From positions 337,321-401,320 of the forward strand of contig JAACJG010000004.1 in assembly GCA_009917695.1 (NCBI GenBank): a stretch of 64,000 bases of DNA, in the 5' to 3' direction. The notes under the pieces were generated by a model, which was not told the origin of the DNA, did no database searches, and saw only the letters and a program-made list of their open reading frames with translations. Source of the stretch: Candidatus Rifleibacterium amylolyticum (GTDB lineage Bacteria > Muiribacteriota > Ozemobacteria > Ozemobacterales > Ozemobacteraceae). Positions 44,807 through 52,892 of this stretch are shown here, piece by piece. Position 1 is the first letter of the stretch; every line of letters starts with the position of its first letter. The position numbers were made by a program, and so were the translations under genes.

Positions 44807-45137
44807 ATGGGAATGTGGACGATTCCGAAAGAGCCGACGGAGGAACAGAAATTTTCCGCCGCCGAACTCGACGAGTTTACCGCAGCTATTGCTACGGCTG
44901 TCTACGCCCGTCGCATGAGCGTTCCGGTCATCATGGCGCTCGAAATGGCCAAGCCGCTGTCCTTTCTGGGATACAGCAGTCTGGTCGTTTTCGGCCCAAT
45001 TCTCGAAATGATAATCGACCCGGTCAAGATGGAAAAGTTTCAGGCGCTGCTGGCTGATCGCAGCCGGATCGAGCGCCTGATCGTCAGCATCGAAGACCTG
45101 GAAAAGTCTAAAACAGAAGACAAGGAAGGTGAATCAC

Positions 45138-45151
<14 letters not shown>
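44807..45151 (+). CDS. Small protein of MutL-like operon, 114 aa
   Basis: No clear membrane span; helical, with an amphipathic middle (SVPVIMALEMAKPLSFLGYSSLVVF) and a charged tail (RLIVSIEDLEKSKTEDKEG). It may be peripheral to the membrane or re-entrant. It lies 15 bp after the polytopic gene and its 3' end overlaps the MutL-like start by 14 bp, indicating translational coupling with that ATPase. No family recognised. Confidence 0.65.
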
Positions 45152-46943
<1,792 letters not shown>

Positions 46944-46961
46944 GCGAAAGGACAATAATCA

Positions 46962-48086
46962 ATGGCCAGTGCATATACCCCAGGTCTCAAAATCGTTGCA
47001 AGAACACTAGTCGAAAAAGACAGAAGACTGCCGCTCAAAGGCGACGTTCATGTTAAGAAGGGCGATCGCGTGACTGCCGAAACGGTAGTTGCCTCGACCA
47101 ATCTGCCGGGAAACGTTTTTCCGGTTAATATAGCCAACATGCTTGGCTGCGAAGCCCGCGAAATTACTGATTTTCTCGTGAAAAAAGAAGGTGACCTTCT
47201 CGAAAAAGATGATGTCATTGCCGAAACTCAGGGTTTTTTCGGGTTTTTCAAAACTTTCGTGCGTTCGCCAATCAAGGGAACAGTCGAAAGTCTTTCGACC
47301 GTAACCGGTCAGGCAATTCTGCGTGAACCGCCGATTCCGGTCGAAGTCCATGCCTATGTTGATGGCGTTATCGATGACGTATACCCCGAAGAAGGCGTTA
47401 AGGTAAATACCGCTGCGACTTTTATTCAGGGCATTTTCGGTATTGGGCCCGAAGTCATCGGCGATCTCAAGATGGCGGTTAATTCGCCTTCAGACGTTCT
47501 CGACAAAGACAACATCAAGCTTGAGCACAAAGGCAAGATCATTGTCGGCGGCTCTCTGGTAACAGCTGCCGCGCTCGACCGTGCTGTTGAACTCGGTGTC
47601 AAAGGTGTTATCGTCGGTGGTTATGATGCGCACGATCTCAAAGAATTTCTCGGTTACGATCTTGGCGTCGCCATCACCGGAACCGAAGACAAAGGCATAA
47701 CTCTGGTCGTCACCGAAGGTTTCGGCAAGATCAATATGGCCAAAAAGACCTTCGATCTGCTCAAGAACGCCGAAGGCCGCAAAACCTCGATCAATGGCGC
47801 AACTCAGATTCGCGCCGGTGTTATCAGACCCGAAGTCGTTATTCCGCTCGCAGATGCTAATATCGCCGATCAGAAACATGCCGCCAACACTGGTATGACG
47901 GTAGGCACTCTGGTGCGCATCATTCGCCAGCCTCACTTTGGTGAAGTTGCCAAAGTAGTTTCGCTGCCTGAAAAGCCGGTAATCATACCTTCAGAAGCCA
48001 AAGTTCGCGTTGTTGAAATCGAAACACTGTCGGCAGGTGAAAAAATGATTCTGCCGCGTGCCAATGTGGAAATAATCGAAGAATAA
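46962..48086 (+). CDS. Barrel-sandwich/KOW-like protein paired with MutL-like ATPase
   Basis: 374 aa, soluble. The N-terminal half has two barrel-sandwich-like repeats (GDVHVKKGDRVTAETVVAS, FVRSPIKGTVESLSTVTGQ, VEVHAYVDGVIDDVYPEEGV) resembling RnfC or biotinyl/lipoyl-type hammerheads, but no MKM modification site. A Gly-rich middle (GKIIVGGSLVTAAALDRAVE, GVKGVIVGGYDAHDLKEFLG) looks like a nucleotide- or ligand-binding alpha/beta segment. The C-terminus (TVGTLVRIIRQPHFGEVAKV) looks like a KOW-type barrel. It lies 18 bp after the ATPase gene. Likely a soluble partner of the ATPase. Confidence 0.65.
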   Translation: MASAYTPGLKIVARTLVEKDRRLPLKGDVHVKKGDRVTAETVVASTNLPGNVFPVNIANMLGCEAREITDFLVKKEGDLLEKDDVIAETQGFFGFFKTFVRSPIKGTVESLSTVTGQAILREPPIPVEVHAYVDGVIDDVYPEEGVKVNTAATFIQGIFGIGPEVIGDLKMAVNSPSDVLDKDNIKLEHKGKIIVGGSLVTAAALDRAVELGVKGVIVGGYDAHDLKEFLGYDLGVAITGTEDKGITLVVTEGFGKINMAKKTFDLLKNAEGRKTSINGATQIRAGVIRPEVVIPLADANIADQKHAANTGMTVGTLVRIIRQPHFGEVAKVVSLPEKPVIIPSEAKVRVVEIETLSAGEKMILPRANVEIIEE

Positions 48087-48090
48087 GACA

Positions 48091-49320
48091 ATGACAGAAA
48101 AATTCAAAGATATCGATCCCGAACAGCTAAAAAAGGAAGTTAAGGAAGAACTCATCAAACGCGAGATTCTCATGGGTCTCGAAGAAGATGAAATCGATCT
48201 TTTTGAACTGTTCAGAGTTCTGGTTAAACACTGGAAGCTTGTCATCGTCATGCCCTTTGTGGTAGCAGTGCTGGTCGCCCTGTACAGTTTGACCCTGCCC
48301 AACTACTTCAAGGCGAACTCAACGATTTTCGTTCATTCGAACAGCAAGCTCAGTGCTCTCAGCAGTCTGCCGTTTGCAGGAATGATTCCGGGGCTTGGTG
48401 GCGGTGGCGGTGGCGCCGAATATCTGATGGTATATCTCAAGAGCCGCACGATGAGCGATCGAATTATAAAGCGCTTTGGTGTGGCGACCAATCCGGCGAT
48501 TGTCGGCGAGAAACCCAAAGAAGATATCAAGTATGATGAAATTCTCAAAATCGTAGATAAGATTGTGTCGGTTGATAAAGACAAGGATGGCTTGATAACT
48601 ATATCGGCTGAAACACTCTCTCCGGAAGTCTCTGCCGAGATTGCCATGGCTTATGTAGACTATCTCAGCAGCTTCGCCCGTGGGCCGCAGAAAGAGAAAC
48701 GTGTGTTTATCGAACAGCAGCTCGAAAAAGTCAGCAAAGAACTTGAGCAGGCAGAAGAAACCTTCAAGGCTTTTCAAGATAAACACCAGATGTTTGCTCT
48801 TGAAAAACAGGCTGCAACTGTGATCGAGAAGCTGGCCAGGCTCGAAGCCGAGAAAATTGGAGCCGGTGTGTCTCTGCAGATGCAGGAAAGCCTGCTCAAG
48901 TCATCCGGCAGTGTGCCTGAACTGGTGAAGATTGAAGGCCAGAAGGTCTCCGAAGAAGCAAAAATAGCTGCTCTCGAAAAAGAAATAGGCTCAACCGAAA
49001 AAGAAATCGCACAATTGCCGCAGCTGGCTCTCGAATTCGCCCGCCTTCAGCGAAATCTAAAGGTCAAAGAAAAAGTGTTTGGTGTTCTGACCGAACAGCA
49101 CGAAATGGCCAAAATAGCTGAAGCCGAAGAAGGCAGCCAGTTCGAAGTCATCGATGTGGCACGGGCTCCTGAACTTAAATCAAAGCCACGCCGTTCAATC
49201 ATGGTTATTCTGGCTGGTTTGAGCGCCGGCGTTCTGGGCGTGTTCGCAGCCTTTCTGATCGAGTTCATCCGTCGTCGCAAAGAACAGGAAGCGAAGCACG
49301 CCGCCCCGGCTGCCGCCTGA
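48091..49320 (+). CDS. Wzz/GumC-type chain-length determinant protein
   Basis: 409 aa. An N-terminal soluble helix leads to a Wzz domain: EIDLFELFRVLVKHWKLVIV with the first transmembrane helix, TLPNYFKANSTIFV, and GLITISAETLSPEVSAEIAM. A long periplasmic coiled coil (residues about 190-340) precedes the second transmembrane helix (SIMVILAGLSAGVLGVFAAF) and a short basic-Ala tail with no kinase domain. Such proteins set polysaccharide chain length or help export. It starts 4 bp after the previous stop, so it shares the MutL-like operon; the polysaccharide locus begins 2.6 kb downstream. Confidence 0.86.
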   Translation: MTEKFKDIDPEQLKKEVKEELIKREILMGLEEDEIDLFELFRVLVKHWKLVIVMPFVVAVLVALYSLTLPNYFKANSTIFVHSNSKLSALSSLPFAGMIPGLGGGGGGAEYLMVYLKSRTMSDRIIKRFGVATNPAIVGEKPKEDIKYDEILKIVDKIVSVDKDKDGLITISAETLSPEVSAEIAMAYVDYLSSFARGPQKEKRVFIEQQLEKVSKELEQAEETFKAFQDKHQMFALEKQAATVIEKLARLEAEKIGAGVSLQMQESLLKSSGSVPELVKIEGQKVSEEAKIAALEKEIGSTEKEIAQLPQLALEFARLQRNLKVKEKVFGVLTEQHEMAKIAEAEEGSQFEVIDVARAPELKSKPRRSIMVILAGLSAGVLGVFAAFLIEFIRRRKEQEAKHAAPAAA

Positions 49321-49346
49321 TCTGTTCTAACTTCTGTAACAACGCG

Positions 49347-49378
49347 TAGGGGTTCAACCTGTTGAACCCCTATTCTTT
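49347..49378 (+). terminator. Terminator-like hairpin (family E repeat) after the MutL-like operon
   Basis: TAGGGGTTCAA and TTGAACCCCTA pair over 11 bp around CCTG, then TTCTTTAT. It has the same GTAGGGG opening as the hairpin at 27286-27309, so it may be a dispersed repeat used as a terminator. The rest of the 228-bp gap holds a family C repeat and AT-rich DNA. Confidence 0.65.
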
Positions 49379-49447
49379 ATAAGATGATAATTGCAGAATC
49401 TTTATTAAGAAAAATGGCTTCGTTTCCGCTGTTATTAATAGCACAAT

Positions 49448-49483
49448 GCTCGTGCTCGTGCTCGTGCTCGTAATCGTAATCGA
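49448..49483. repeat. Dispersed repeat, family C
   Basis: Four CTCGTG units (GCTCGTGCTCGTGCTCGTG) followed by CTCGTAATCGTAATCG. Confidence 0.8.
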
Positions 49484-49548
49484 AAGAATCGTTTTCTCTC
49501 TGTTTTCGTGATTATAACAACTTTACAAAATAATGCAGGTGTTTCTCA

Positions 49549-51321
49549 TTGATCACATTATTTTCGTGGTTTAACAGCAGGATAGCAGAAGCATACCAGA
49601 CAACACATTGTCATTCTGCGCGACCTGTTCTTCGAAGCCTTGGCGAAGAAGAAAGTCGCAGAATCCATCTTAAAGATTCATCCGATCCGCTGTCGCCTGC
49701 TGAAACGCTCCGCCGACTCGGCGCTCCAGCTGAATTGGCGAACATCTTTACCTCACTGATTGATTGTGAAATTATTCTCAAAGCTGCCGTAGATGGCGAT
49801 GTGCCAGACCTGGAGCTTCGCGAAAAAAAACGTAAGCGTAACACCGGACAGTTTTATACCCCTGAAGCCTTGGCCGAACGGCTGGTTGAGATTGCCGATC
49901 TTGCACCAGAAGGCGATATTCTCGACCCGGCCTGCGGCGATGGCAGTTTTTTAATGGCTATGGCAAGAAAACTGGCCCAGAACAAGACTTATCCGCAGAT
50001 TACGCAGATGGCCGCAGATGAGAATGAAGAATTCTTAAGCCGTCTGCACGGCTTCGATATCGATCTGCAGGCTTTATTTATCTGCTTAACCCGGCTGATA
50101 TGCGCTTTCCCGAACAGTGGCTGGCCTGTGCTCAAGCATAGCGATTTTCTGATGAATCCACCTGATCGCTGTTACTCAGTGATAATAGGCAATCCTCCAT
50201 ACCGGGTAAATCTTGACGAAGCTTTTAAACAGCGCCTGGCAGAGATTTATGAAACAGGCGAGGGTGAAAAAGACCTCTATACATTTTTTATTGAGGGTAG
50301 CCTCAAGGCTTTGCGACCGGGTGGTCGGCTGGTTATGCTGACTTCGCATACCTATCTGGTAAATCACCAGTGCAGCAAAATCAGACGGCATATTTTTGCT
50401 GAGCATAATGTTCGGGCCATTATGCTTTTGCCATCCAGGTTTTTTGTGCAGGCACCAGGTGTTTTGCCGGTCGTTCTCGTTGCCGATGCCGAGTCGCCCC
50501 CTGATGGCAATCAGTTAAGTGTTTACACGTCGTATAACGAAAAAGACGGCTGGAGTCAGTGTTTTCATGCACCCGCCAGTCTCTTTGTTGAAAGCAGTGG
50601 TCTGCGTCAGGCAATAGTGCCACCGCAATTGCAGCAGGTTTTTGCCGAGATGAACAGTTGCAGCCGGCTGGGCCGTCACTGTCGGGTGGGTGTCGGCATT
50701 CAGGAAGCTCTCAAGCGTGATGGAAAGATTTCGCGTTACGTCAGCGACAAGAAGATATCTGCAGCATATAAGCGCGTTTTGCGCGGACGTGAGCTCGAGC
50801 CATTCACCATCAACTGGGAAGGTAATTATATCGACTATGGACCACATCTGGCCTATGCTGGCGATGAAGCCGTCTTTGCCGGGCCCAAAATTCTGTATCA
50901 GAATATTCGCAATGAGCGCCTCAAGATCAGGCTGGTAGCAGCTTATGACAATGAAGGCTTTTTCCCGAAAAATTCGCTGTCCTATATTCTTACCAAGCCA
51001 GAAGATTTAAGTGCATGGTTCCTGATTGGGTTACTCAACAGTCTGCTGGTAAATGCCTGGTTCAGCGGGAATTTTCACAGCTTTCACATTACTGTTACGC
51101 AGGTGCGTCAGATCCCGCTGCCGCAATGTTCTGCCGCGCTTCAACAAAAGATTTCAGATTTGGCAGAGCGGTTACATGCGACTAACGGCGGCACCAATAA
51201 TTGGCAGAAGACTTATGAGCAGCTGAATCTGCTGGTATGTGAGAGCTACCTTGGTGTCGGCGATCATAAACAGCTGCTGACCATCTGTGATAATTTTCTT
51301 GATCAGGCCGCCGCGTTATGA
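49549..51321 (+). CDS. N6-adenine DNA methyltransferase (Eco57I/type IIG-like), repeat-expanded
   Basis: 590 aa from TTG 49549 behind AGGTG. TGQFYTPEALAERLVE (99-114), motif I ILDPACGDGSF (124-134) and motif IV VIIGNPPYRV (211-220) define an N6-adenine methyltransferase that binds S-adenosylmethionine. Residues 280-590 resemble the target-recognition half of Eco57I-like or stand-alone enzymes; no nuclease motif is evident and no restriction gene is adjacent. Two dispersed repeats lie inside the frame: family B at about residues 20-42 and family D at about 148-158, the latter just after motif I. A later start would avoid only the first. Activity is plausible but unproven. Confidence 0.83.
   Translation: MITLFSWFNSRIAEAYQTTHCHSARPVLRSLGEEESRRIHLKDSSDPLSPAETLRRLGAPAELANIFTSLIDCEIILKAAVDGDVPDLELREKKRKRNTGQFYTPEALAERLVEIADLAPEGDILDPACGDGSFLMAMARKLAQNKTYPQITQMAADENEEFLSRLHGFDIDLQALFICLTRLICAFPNSGWPVLKHSDFLMNPPDRCYSVIIGNPPYRVNLDEAFKQRLAEIYETGEGEKDLYTFFIEGSLKALRPGGRLVMLTSHTYLVNHQCSKIRRHIFAEHNVRAIMLLPSRFFVQAPGVLPVVLVADAESPPDGNQLSVYTSYNEKDGWSQCFHAPASLFVESSGLRQAIVPPQLQQVFAEMNSCSRLGRHCRVGVGIQEALKRDGKISRYVSDKKISAAYKRVLRGRELEPFTINWEGNYIDYGPHLAYAGDEAVFAGPKILYQNIRNERLKIRLVAAYDNEGFFPKNSLSYILTKPEDLSAWFLIGLLNSLLVNAWFSGNFHSFHITVTQVRQIPLPQCSAALQQKISDLAERLHATNGGTNNWQKTYEQLNLLVCESYLGVGDHKQLLTICDNFLDQAAAL
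49608..49674. repeat. Family B repeat inside the methyltransferase reading frame
   Basis: TTGTCATTCTGCGCGACC...AAGTCGCAGAATCCATC, with an inner inverted pair (CTTCGAAGCC/GGCGAAGAAG). Encodes about residues 20-42. Confidence 0.85.
49991..50020. repeat. Family D repeat inside the methyltransferase reading frame
   Basis: ATCCGCAGATTACGCAGATG followed by GCCGCAGATG, a tandem of GCAGAT units encoding about residues 148-157. Partial relatives at 11289-11318 and 22736-22748. Confidence 0.65.
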
Positions 51322-51327
51322 TAAATT
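51299..51327 (+). promoter_or_regulatory. Promoter of the FmdB-type gene
   Basis: TTGATC (51299-51304), 17 bp, TAAATT (51322-51327), immediately upstream of the CIRCE element, so HrcA bound there would block initiation. Confidence 0.6.
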
Positions 51328-51328
51328 A

Positions 51329-51355
51329 TTAGCACTCTGATAAATCGAGTGCTAA
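51329..51355. promoter_or_regulatory. Perfect CIRCE operator (HrcA binding site)
   Basis: TTAGCACTC, nine bases, GAGTGCTAA: an exact match to the CIRCE consensus, placed over the expected transcription start of the next gene. CIRCE is bound by HrcA and normally controls groESL or dnaK operons. Confidence 0.95.
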
Positions 51356-51385
51356 CTGTTTTTGTGCCCTCAGGAGGAAAGGTTC

Positions 51386-51754
51386 ATGCCAACCTACAGC
51401 TATAGATGTACAAAATGTAATACAACATTTGATGCCTTTCATTCAATGTCGTGCAAAGATCCGCAGCACTGTCCGGATTGTGGCGGGGAAGGCACCAAGC
51501 TGCTTTCAGCTAGTTCGGTAATTTTTAAAGGATCTGGTTTTTATTCAACCGATTACCGCGATTCCGGCTACCTCGAAGCCAAAAAAAAAGACGGTAACGG
51601 CGTCAGCAAACCTGAAAGCAAGCCAGATTCAACGACCACGCCAGCTACAGAATCTTCTGCCCCAGCTAAAAAGGCAGATACTCCAGCAGCCGCTCCTGCA
51701 ACATCGACAACGCCTTCACCGGCAAAAACGACTCCCACCGCCCAGGCCGCCTGA
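51386..51754 (+). CDS. FmdB-family zinc-ribbon protein with low-complexity tail
   Basis: 122 aa from ATG 51386 with CAGGAGG upstream. The FmdB-type zinc ribbon occupies residues 1-45: MPTYSYRCTKCNTTFDAFHS, then HCPDCGGEG, giving two CxxC pairs for zinc. A GSGFYSTDYRDSGY segment follows, as in many family members. The remaining 60 residues are a Ser/Thr/Pro/Ala/Lys-rich disordered tail. The biochemical role of this family is not established. The CIRCE operator puts it under probable HrcA heat-shock control, hinting at a protein-quality role. Confidence 0.9.
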   Translation: MPTYSYRCTKCNTTFDAFHSMSCKDPQHCPDCGGEGTKLLSASSVIFKGSGFYSTDYRDSGYLEAKKKDGNGVSKPESKPDSTTTPATESSAPAKKADTPAAAPATSTTPSPAKTTPTAQAA

Positions 51755-51953: not shown

Positions 51954-52892
51954 ATGGCGGCGAAACCAACAATTTTAATGACCGGAGCCTCTGGCTTTGC
52001 AGGCGGCAATATTGCTGCCTGGTTTTTGCAGCGAGGCTACCGGATTATTGCGCCTTGCCGGGTGCGACCCGCTGACGACCGCATTGAATTTCATCAGATT
52101 TCCCGTATAGATCGTTATACCTTCTGGGAAGACATGCTGAGAGGTGTCGATGCTGTCGTTCATCTGGCCGGTCGCGCTCATCAGATGCGCGAGAAACCGG
52201 ATTCATATCATCTCTATTTCGAAACGAATTTTGAAGGATCGGTTAATCTGGCTCTCCAGGCCGCAAAGCAGGGTGTAAAGCGCTTTATCTTTGTCAGCAG
52301 CATCAAAGCGATGATCAGTGACGCCTGCGAAATGGCGCTAACCGAGAACACGCCCTGCAATCCTCTCGAACCCTATGGACAGTCAAAGCTCAAGGCCGAA
52401 ATCGAGCTCAAAAAGATCAGCGAAGAAACCGGTATGGAACTGGTGATTCTGCGCCCGCCGCTTATTTACGGCCCTGGAGTAAAAGGCAACTTCGAGAGTC
52501 TTGTCAGACTGGTCAAAAATTTCGGCATTCTGCCGCTTGGTGGTCTGACCAATCGCCGCAGCCTGCTTGCCATCGACAATCTTGCTTCGGCGATCGAAAC
52601 CGCCATGCTCAGCGCAACAACGCCCGGCAAAACCTATCTGCTCAGCGATGGTGAGGAAATTTCGACAACCGAGCTGGTAACCCGCATAGCAGCTGTCTTC
52701 AACCCTGCCTGCCGCATCATATCTCTGCCAAGATGGCTCTGGCTACTCAGCTCAAGAATTCCACTGCTATCCGTAAAAATCGCCCGCCTCGAAGGCTCAC
52801 TGCCGGTAGACTCAAGCCGCTTCGCCTCTGAAACAAACTGGCAGCCAACCATCAATATGGAACAACAGCTTAAGAAGATGCTATCGGAATAG
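51954..52892 (+). CDS. SDR-type NAD(P)-dependent epimerase/reductase, WbpV/WreQ-like
   Basis: 312 aa from ATG 51954 (a TTG at 51936 is the alternative; neither has a good ribosome-binding site). Extended SDR motifs: TILMTGASGFAGGNIAAWFL, FIFVSSIKAM, YGQSKLKAE (Tyr and Lys of the active site) and VILRPPLIYGPG. The C-terminal NRRSLLAIDNLASAIE, YLLSDGEEISTTELV and LEGSLPVDSSRF resemble the branch that reduces 4-keto UDP-sugars to UDP-QuiNAc or UDP-FucNAc. Such genes often pair with a WbpL-like initiating transferase, as here (next gene, convergent). The exact sugar is inferred. Confidence 0.82.
   Translation: MAAKPTILMTGASGFAGGNIAAWFLQRGYRIIAPCRVRPADDRIEFHQISRIDRYTFWEDMLRGVDAVVHLAGRAHQMREKPDSYHLYFETNFEGSVNLALQAAKQGVKRFIFVSSIKAMISDACEMALTENTPCNPLEPYGQSKLKAEIELKKISEETGMELVILRPPLIYGPGVKGNFESLVRLVKNFGILPLGGLTNRRSLLAIDNLASAIETAMLSATTPGKTYLLSDGEEISTTELVTRIAAVFNPACRIISLPRWLWLLSSRIPLLSVKIARLEGSLPVDSSRFASETNWQPTINMEQQLKKMLSE

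What the first reader, a model, noticed from the sequence alone, without database searches (positions are those of the whole stretch)
51299..51754. Perfect CIRCE heat-shock operator controls an FmdB-type zinc-ribbon gene
TTAGCACTC-N9-GAGTGCTAA sits just past a -10 sequence and upstream of a small zinc-ribbon gene, not a chaperonin or dnaK operon. FmdB-like proteins have no settled function; HrcA control would tie this one to proteostasis.
Basis: partly seen in the sequence, partly recalled or inferred. Interest (0 to 1): 0.7.

Follow-up and report, generated by a model that had tools for sequence, protein, structure and literature searches.

The report
HrcA-controlled Ruc-type chaperone gene in Riflebacteria
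A textbook heat-shock operator sits in front of a small zinc-ribbon gene that matches Ruc, a known oxidation-activated chaperone of tuberculosis bacteria, so the switch is real and conserved, but the regulator-gene pairing was already known and is shown here to recur in several distant bacterial phyla.

Summary
A perfect CIRCE operator (51329-51355) lies 30 nt before the ATG of an FmdB-type zinc-ribbon gene (51386-51754). The genome encodes full-length HrcA and has only one other CIRCE, in front of a groES-groEL-groES-groEL-hrcA-grpE-dnaK-dnaJ gene run. One of the two genera without it has also lost hrcA and every other CIRCE. The claim of no settled function does not hold: the protein has the Ruc (Rv0991c) architecture, with Cys8/11/29/32 at Ruc's exact positions, an FKGSGFYxTDxR motif and a disordered tail. 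Ruc is an oxidation-activated chaperone and an established HrcA target in M. tuberculosis. So this is a new member of a known kind: an HrcA-repressed ruc in Candidatus Riflebacteria. New in extent: a scan of GTDB genomes found at least 97 CIRCE-ruc pairs across Actinomycetota, Chloroflexota, Eremiobacterota, Armatimonadota, Ignavibacteriota and Riflebacteria; ten encode homologues without ribbon cysteines, which cannot be redox-gated. HrcA binding, heat induction and chaperone activity are untested in this organism.

The parts
51320..51325 (+). candidate -10 hexamer GATAAA, overlapping the stop of the upstream methyltransferase gene
   Evidence: sequence; similar A+T-rich hexamer 2-3 nt before CIRCE in several relatives; not significant by consensus scan
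51329..51355 (.). CIRCE operator, perfect 18/18 match to TTAGCACTC-N9-GAGTGCTAA
   Evidence: unique in window, one of two in the genome
51372..51377 (+). ribosome-binding site AGGAGG, 8 nt before the ATG
   Evidence: sequence; AGGAGGAAAGG-like site retained in most orthologues, also in genus g11 where CIRCE is gone
51386..51754 (+). ruc / FmdB-family zinc-ribbon protein, 122 aa: ribbon Cys8-Cys11-Cys29-Cys32, FKGSGFYSTDYRD motif, disordered Ala/Pro/Thr/Lys tail
   Evidence: AlphaFold2 model mean pLDDT 89-91 for residues 1-20, 79 for 21-30 and 91 for 31-40, then 52-65 with almost no secondary structure
49549..51321 (+). upstream neighbour, Eco57I/TaqI-type N6-adenine methyltransferase; its 3' end holds the candidate promoter
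   Evidence: adjacent to ruc in much of the family

Best explanation
The locus is a single-gene heat-shock unit. HrcA bound to the CIRCE dyad near the start of transcription keeps a Ruc-type chaperone gene off. When unfolded proteins accumulate, HrcA loses activity (in other bacteria because GroEL is titrated away from it) and ruc is derepressed together with the groES-groEL-hrcA-grpE-dnaK-dnaJ run that carries the genome's only other CIRCE. The small protein is most likely a holdase. The zinc-bound, reduced ribbon keeps it inactive; oxidation releases zinc and lets the disordered tail help hold unfolded proteins for DnaK/DnaJ. Shown here: the operator, its conservation, hrcA, the predicted regulon content and the protein architecture. 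Inferred from M. tuberculosis Ruc and general HrcA biology: repression, heat induction, redox activation and chaperone action.
For: Perfect operator, chance effectively nil. HrcA equivalog TIGR00331 at 273 bits against a cut-off of 197, over the whole profile. The only other CIRCE heads the groES/groEL/hrcA/grpE/dnaK/dnaJ run. CIRCE with 0-1 mismatches within 170 nt of the orthologue in 12 genomes of 5 genera; arms 98% identical against 53% in the spacer and 45-63% in the flanks. Four of four genomes of genus g11 lack hrcA, lack any CIRCE and still carry the orthologue, with best upstream site 8-9 mismatches. Ruc identity: Cys8, 11, 29 and 32 as in Rv0991c, invariant FKG-GFY..D in 34 CIRCE-linked homologues including a mycobacterial one, structured ribbon plus disordered tail. 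Ruc chaperone activity and HrcA repression in M. tuberculosis: PMC7448276.
Against: Genus g5 (G009, G016) has hrcA and a CIRCE at groEL but none at ruc, so the link is dispensable. Other families of the phylum have Ruc-like genes without CIRCE. The genome also has Hsp33, so Ruc is not its only redox-chaperone candidate. In two genomes (G004, G015) CIRCE is present but hrcA was not found, presumably because the assemblies are incomplete. The ruc neighbourhood here holds no chaperone genes. No expression, binding or activity data exist for this organism.
Confidence: 0.85

Rival explanations
1. HrcA does control the gene, but the protein is not a redox chaperone here; it is another kind of FmdB zinc-ribbon protein (for example a nucleic-acid- or ribosome-binding factor) induced on heat shock.
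For: FmdB/TIGR02605 is a broad family; four paralogues in the same genome have no CIRCE, and the three that were read have different tails. Hsp33 is also present. Ruc function rests, as far as found here, on one experimental paper.
Against: This copy has the Ruc motif FKGSGFYxTDxR, the Ruc cysteine spacing and the operator; the same subfamily is CIRCE-linked in at least 97 genomes.
Confidence: 0.12
2. The CIRCE is a relic or chance palindrome with no regulatory role at this gene.
For: Genus g5 keeps hrcA but lost the site at ruc.
Against: Expectation about 2e-7 for a site with at most 1 mismatch in 300 nt; conserved arms between diverged spacer and flanks in 12 genomes; loss together with hrcA in g11.
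Confidence: 0.02
3. The operator mainly serves a longer transcript including the downstream NAD-dependent epimerase (51954-52892), with ruc as a passenger.
For: Same strand, 200-nt gap.
Against: Among the relatives searched the epimerase follows ruc only in G003 and G005; the operator and ruc stay together in the others.
Confidence: 0.02

Closest known systems
Ruc (Rv0991c) of Mycobacterium tuberculosis, redox-regulated chaperone with unstructured C terminus (Becker et al. 2020, PMC7448276)
   Same: FmdB-type zinc ribbon with Cys8/11/29/32, FKGSGFYxTD motif (seen here in a Mycobacterium homologue, L136), disordered hydrophilic tail, HrcA operator upstream, co-regulated with chaperonins
   Different: Different phylum; no SigH input is known; long tail, at or above the upper limit reported for Ruc tails; one extra Cys23 not present in all orthologues; redox activity untested; this genome also has Hsp33
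HrcA/CIRCE regulon (groESL, hrcA-grpE-dnaK-dnaJ; rpoH in Geobacter sulfurreducens, PMC545781)
   Same: Identical operator consensus, hrcA equivalog, groES/groEL run as the other target
   Different: Adds ruc as the only separate target; one CIRCE heads the whole groE-hrcA-dnaK run
Hsp33 (HslO)
   Same: Works alike in principle: zinc-held, oxidation-activated holdase with a disordered region
   Different: Unrelated sequence; a separate Hsp33 gene exists in this genome

Membership tests
CIRCE operator / HrcA regulon | TTAGCACTC-N9-GAGTGCTAA | tested here: met
   18/18 at 51329-51355
CIRCE operator / HrcA regulon | hrcA in the same genome | tested here: met
   TIGR00331 full length, above cut-off
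CIRCE operator / HrcA regulon | conserved at the orthologue in relatives | tested here: met
   12 of 18 orthologues; missing in genus g11 (hrcA also missing) and genus g5 (hrcA present)
CIRCE operator / HrcA regulon | operator overlaps promoter or transcription start | tested here: inconclusive
   candidate -10 ends 3 nt upstream, but the promoter scan is not clearly above chance
CIRCE operator / HrcA regulon | HrcA binds; gene induced by heat | not testable with these tools
   needs gel shift and RT-qPCR
Ruc family | N-terminal zinc ribbon with two CxxC pairs 17 residues apart | tested here: met
   C8-x2-C11-x17-C29-x2-C32; ribbon modelled with confidence
Ruc family | disordered hydrophilic C-terminal tail | tested here: met
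   residues after about 43: low pLDDT, almost no secondary structure; Ala/Pro/Thr/Lys/Ser-rich
Ruc family | zinc-bound inactive form, oxidation-activated chaperone | not testable with these tools
   shown only for the M. tuberculosis protein (PMC7448276)
Ruc family | gene near chaperone genes (frequent, not defining) | tested here: not met
   neighbours are MutL/GlmL-like, RnfC-N, Wzz, N6-methyltransferase and epimerase genes

The most novel reading that the evidence does not exclude
HrcA repression of ruc is not a mycobacterial peculiarity but a recurrent, possibly ancient, core HrcA target across several phyla. In lineages where Ruc has lost all its ribbon cysteines (Solirubrobacterales, some Acidimicrobiia) the protein is a constitutively active holdase whose main gate is transcriptional control by HrcA.
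Probability: 0.5. Interest if true: 0.55.

Novelty: new member of a known kind. Interest (0 to 1): 0.4.

Why it matters
It extends the Ruc-HrcA pairing, tested experimentally (in the papers found) only in M. tuberculosis, to an uncultivated phylum, and shows by genome scan that CIRCE-ruc recurs in several phyla. That makes 'FmdB with the FKGSGFY motif' annotatable as a candidate HrcA-regulated chaperone. The joint loss of hrcA, all CIRCE sites and the ruc operator in one genus is natural evidence that the site is read by HrcA. Cysteine-free relatives under the same operator offer a direct test of whether redox gating is essential to Ruc.

Tried and rejected
Chance palindrome: rejected by shuffles, the whole-genome count and conservation. 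Reliance on the sigma-70 scan: dropped, not clearly above shuffles. Search for a solved homologue: none at E up to 1. Tree to decide between ancient and repeatedly gained CIRCE-ruc: only 75 columns, many deep forks unresolved, so left open. Hsp33/Ruc mutual exclusion as an argument for function: not supported here, Hsp33 is present in the window's genus.

Full report
Observation. The window holds one CIRCE element, TTAGCACTCTGATAAATCGAGTGCTAA, at 51329-51355; no other site with up to 3 mismatches exists in 64 kb and none appeared in 100 shuffles. The next gene starts at ATG 51386 behind AGGAGG (51372-51377) and ends at 51754. Its 122-aa product matches TIGR02605 (FmdB family zinc ribbon) at 64 bits and Pfam Zn_ribbon_8 at 50 bits.

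Genome context. The host genome (G000, 5.39 Mb, 96% complete) has one hrcA (TIGR00331 at 273 bits, cut-off 197) and only two CIRCE sites with up to 3 mismatches. The second, with one mismatch, lies 50 nt before groES in a same-strand run groES-groEL-groES-groEL-hrcA-grpE-dnaK-dnaJ (dnaK and dnaJ read). The predicted HrcA regulon is therefore this chaperone run plus the FmdB gene.

Conservation. All 40 genomes held for the phylum were searched. Eighteen genomes of the window's family carry the orthologue (FHSM...IFKGSGFYxTDYRD). Twelve have CIRCE with 0-1 mismatches upstream: G000-G003, G005, G010, G011, G012, G015, G017, G019 and G020, from five genera; the distance to the ATG is 23-37 nt in eight, 77 nt in two, 168 nt in one and 2 nt in one. 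Across the twelve the two arms are 98% identical while the spacer is 53% and the 20-nt flanks 63% and 45%. Every other CIRCE with at most 2 mismatches in the family that could be assigned precedes groES or groEL, except one before a DUF2188 gene in G010; one more lies at a contig end in G003.

Loss with the repressor. Genus g11 (G018, G021, G022, G023; two of them 95-96% complete) has no detectable hrcA and no CIRCE anywhere, yet keeps the orthologue; in G018 it still lies behind the same methyltransferase gene, with the ribosome-binding site intact and unrelated sequence where CIRCE would be. Genus g5 keeps hrcA and a CIRCE at groEL but has none at ruc. In the protein tree both CIRCE-less genera are nested among CIRCE-bearing orthologues, so the site was most simply present in the family ancestor and lost twice. 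Caveats: these are incomplete metagenome assemblies, the tree is short of columns, and G004 and G015 show CIRCE without a detected hrcA.

What the protein is. The subfamily here matches Ruc (Rv0991c), described in PMC7448276: an HrcA-repressed, heat-induced M. tuberculosis protein with a four-cysteine zinc ribbon and a disordered tail. Reduced zinc-bound Ruc is inactive, oxidised Ruc prevents aggregation and helps Hsp70, the tail is required, and Cys-to-Ser variants are active without oxidation. The window protein has cysteines at exactly Ruc's positions 8, 11, 29 and 32. With 33 CIRCE-linked homologues, including one from a Mycobacterium species (L136), it shares invariant M1 P2 Y4 Y6 C8 C11 C29 C32 and F47 K48 G49 G51 F52 Y53 D56. 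AlphaFold2 gives a confident three-strand ribbon over about residues 1-40 and low confidence with almost no secondary structure beyond. The four FmdB paralogues in the same genome have no CIRCE; the three that were read lack the FKGSGFY motif.

Breadth. Ninety-seven encode a Ruc-like protein with the FKGSGFY-type motif; the rest are chance matches or genes cut by the end of the stretch. They come from Actinomycetota (most), Chloroflexota, Eremiobacterota, Armatimonadota, Ignavibacteriota and Riflebacteria; single hits labelled Acidobacteriota (L176) and Deinococci (L169) group with actinobacterial proteins and may be mis-binned. Of 30 such genomes tested, 25 have hrcA. In the papers found, HrcA control of ruc is described only for M. 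tuberculosis; no held paper joins CIRCE, HrcA and FmdB. Whether the pairing is ancient or arose repeatedly cannot be decided from 75 aligned columns.

Side result. Ten of the 97 CIRCE-linked homologues have no cysteine in the ribbon region. In six of those ten genomes (G058, G065, G066, G075, G079, G080) the only FmdB-model match over the cut-off appears to be the cysteine-free copy itself; three others (G069, G073, G082) have a further, ordinary FmdB match and one has none. The cysteine-free proteins cannot be zinc- or redox-gated through the ribbon. Since Cys-to-Ser Ruc is active without oxidant, they are predicted to be constitutive and controlled mainly by transcription; this is inference.

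Mechanism and confidence. Shown: operator, conservation, repressor gene, predicted regulon make-up, protein architecture. Inferred: HrcA occupancy near the transcription start, derepression on heat shock, and an oxidation-activated holdase feeding DnaK/DnaJ. The promoter itself is not settled. Verdict: a real, conserved HrcA target, a new member of a known kind (HrcA-controlled Ruc), moderately interesting for its phylogenetic breadth.

Noticed in passing
L107, L124, L126, L132, L161, L169, L187, L197, L202, L210: CIRCE-controlled Ruc homologues (MPIYEYRRPDGTTFEV.. and MPTYVYKFIDTGETIEV.. types) with no zinc-ribbon cysteines but the FKG-GF motif kept; ribbon-based redox gating is impossible in these.
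   Followed up: partly
L094 (G010:C30:12182-12208): Perfect CIRCE 25 nt before a 78-aa DUF2188 gene, a possible further non-chaperone HrcA target in one Riflebacteria genome; not seen in its sister genome G017.
   Followed up: partly
G000 C9:78559-79380: The window's genome encodes Hsp33 as well as Ruc, unlike the anticorrelation reported for the two families; within the phylum Hsp33 was found only in the window's own family.
   Followed up: partly
window 45129-51321: Conserved gene order MutL/GlmL-like, RnfC-N-like, Wzz-like, orphan Eco57I/TaqI-type N6-methyltransferase, ruc in much of the family; no restriction partner of the methyltransferase is apparent among the adjacent genes.
   Followed up: no
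L222 (G002), position about 8167: In G002 the CIRCE lies only 2 nt from the ruc ATG; compared with sister G001 about 30 nt with the ribosome-binding site is missing: a real deletion or an assembly error.
   Followed up: no
L093 1591-7449: Two tandem groES-groEL pairs, then hrcA-grpE-dnaK-dnaJ, in one co-directional run behind a single CIRCE.
   Followed up: partly
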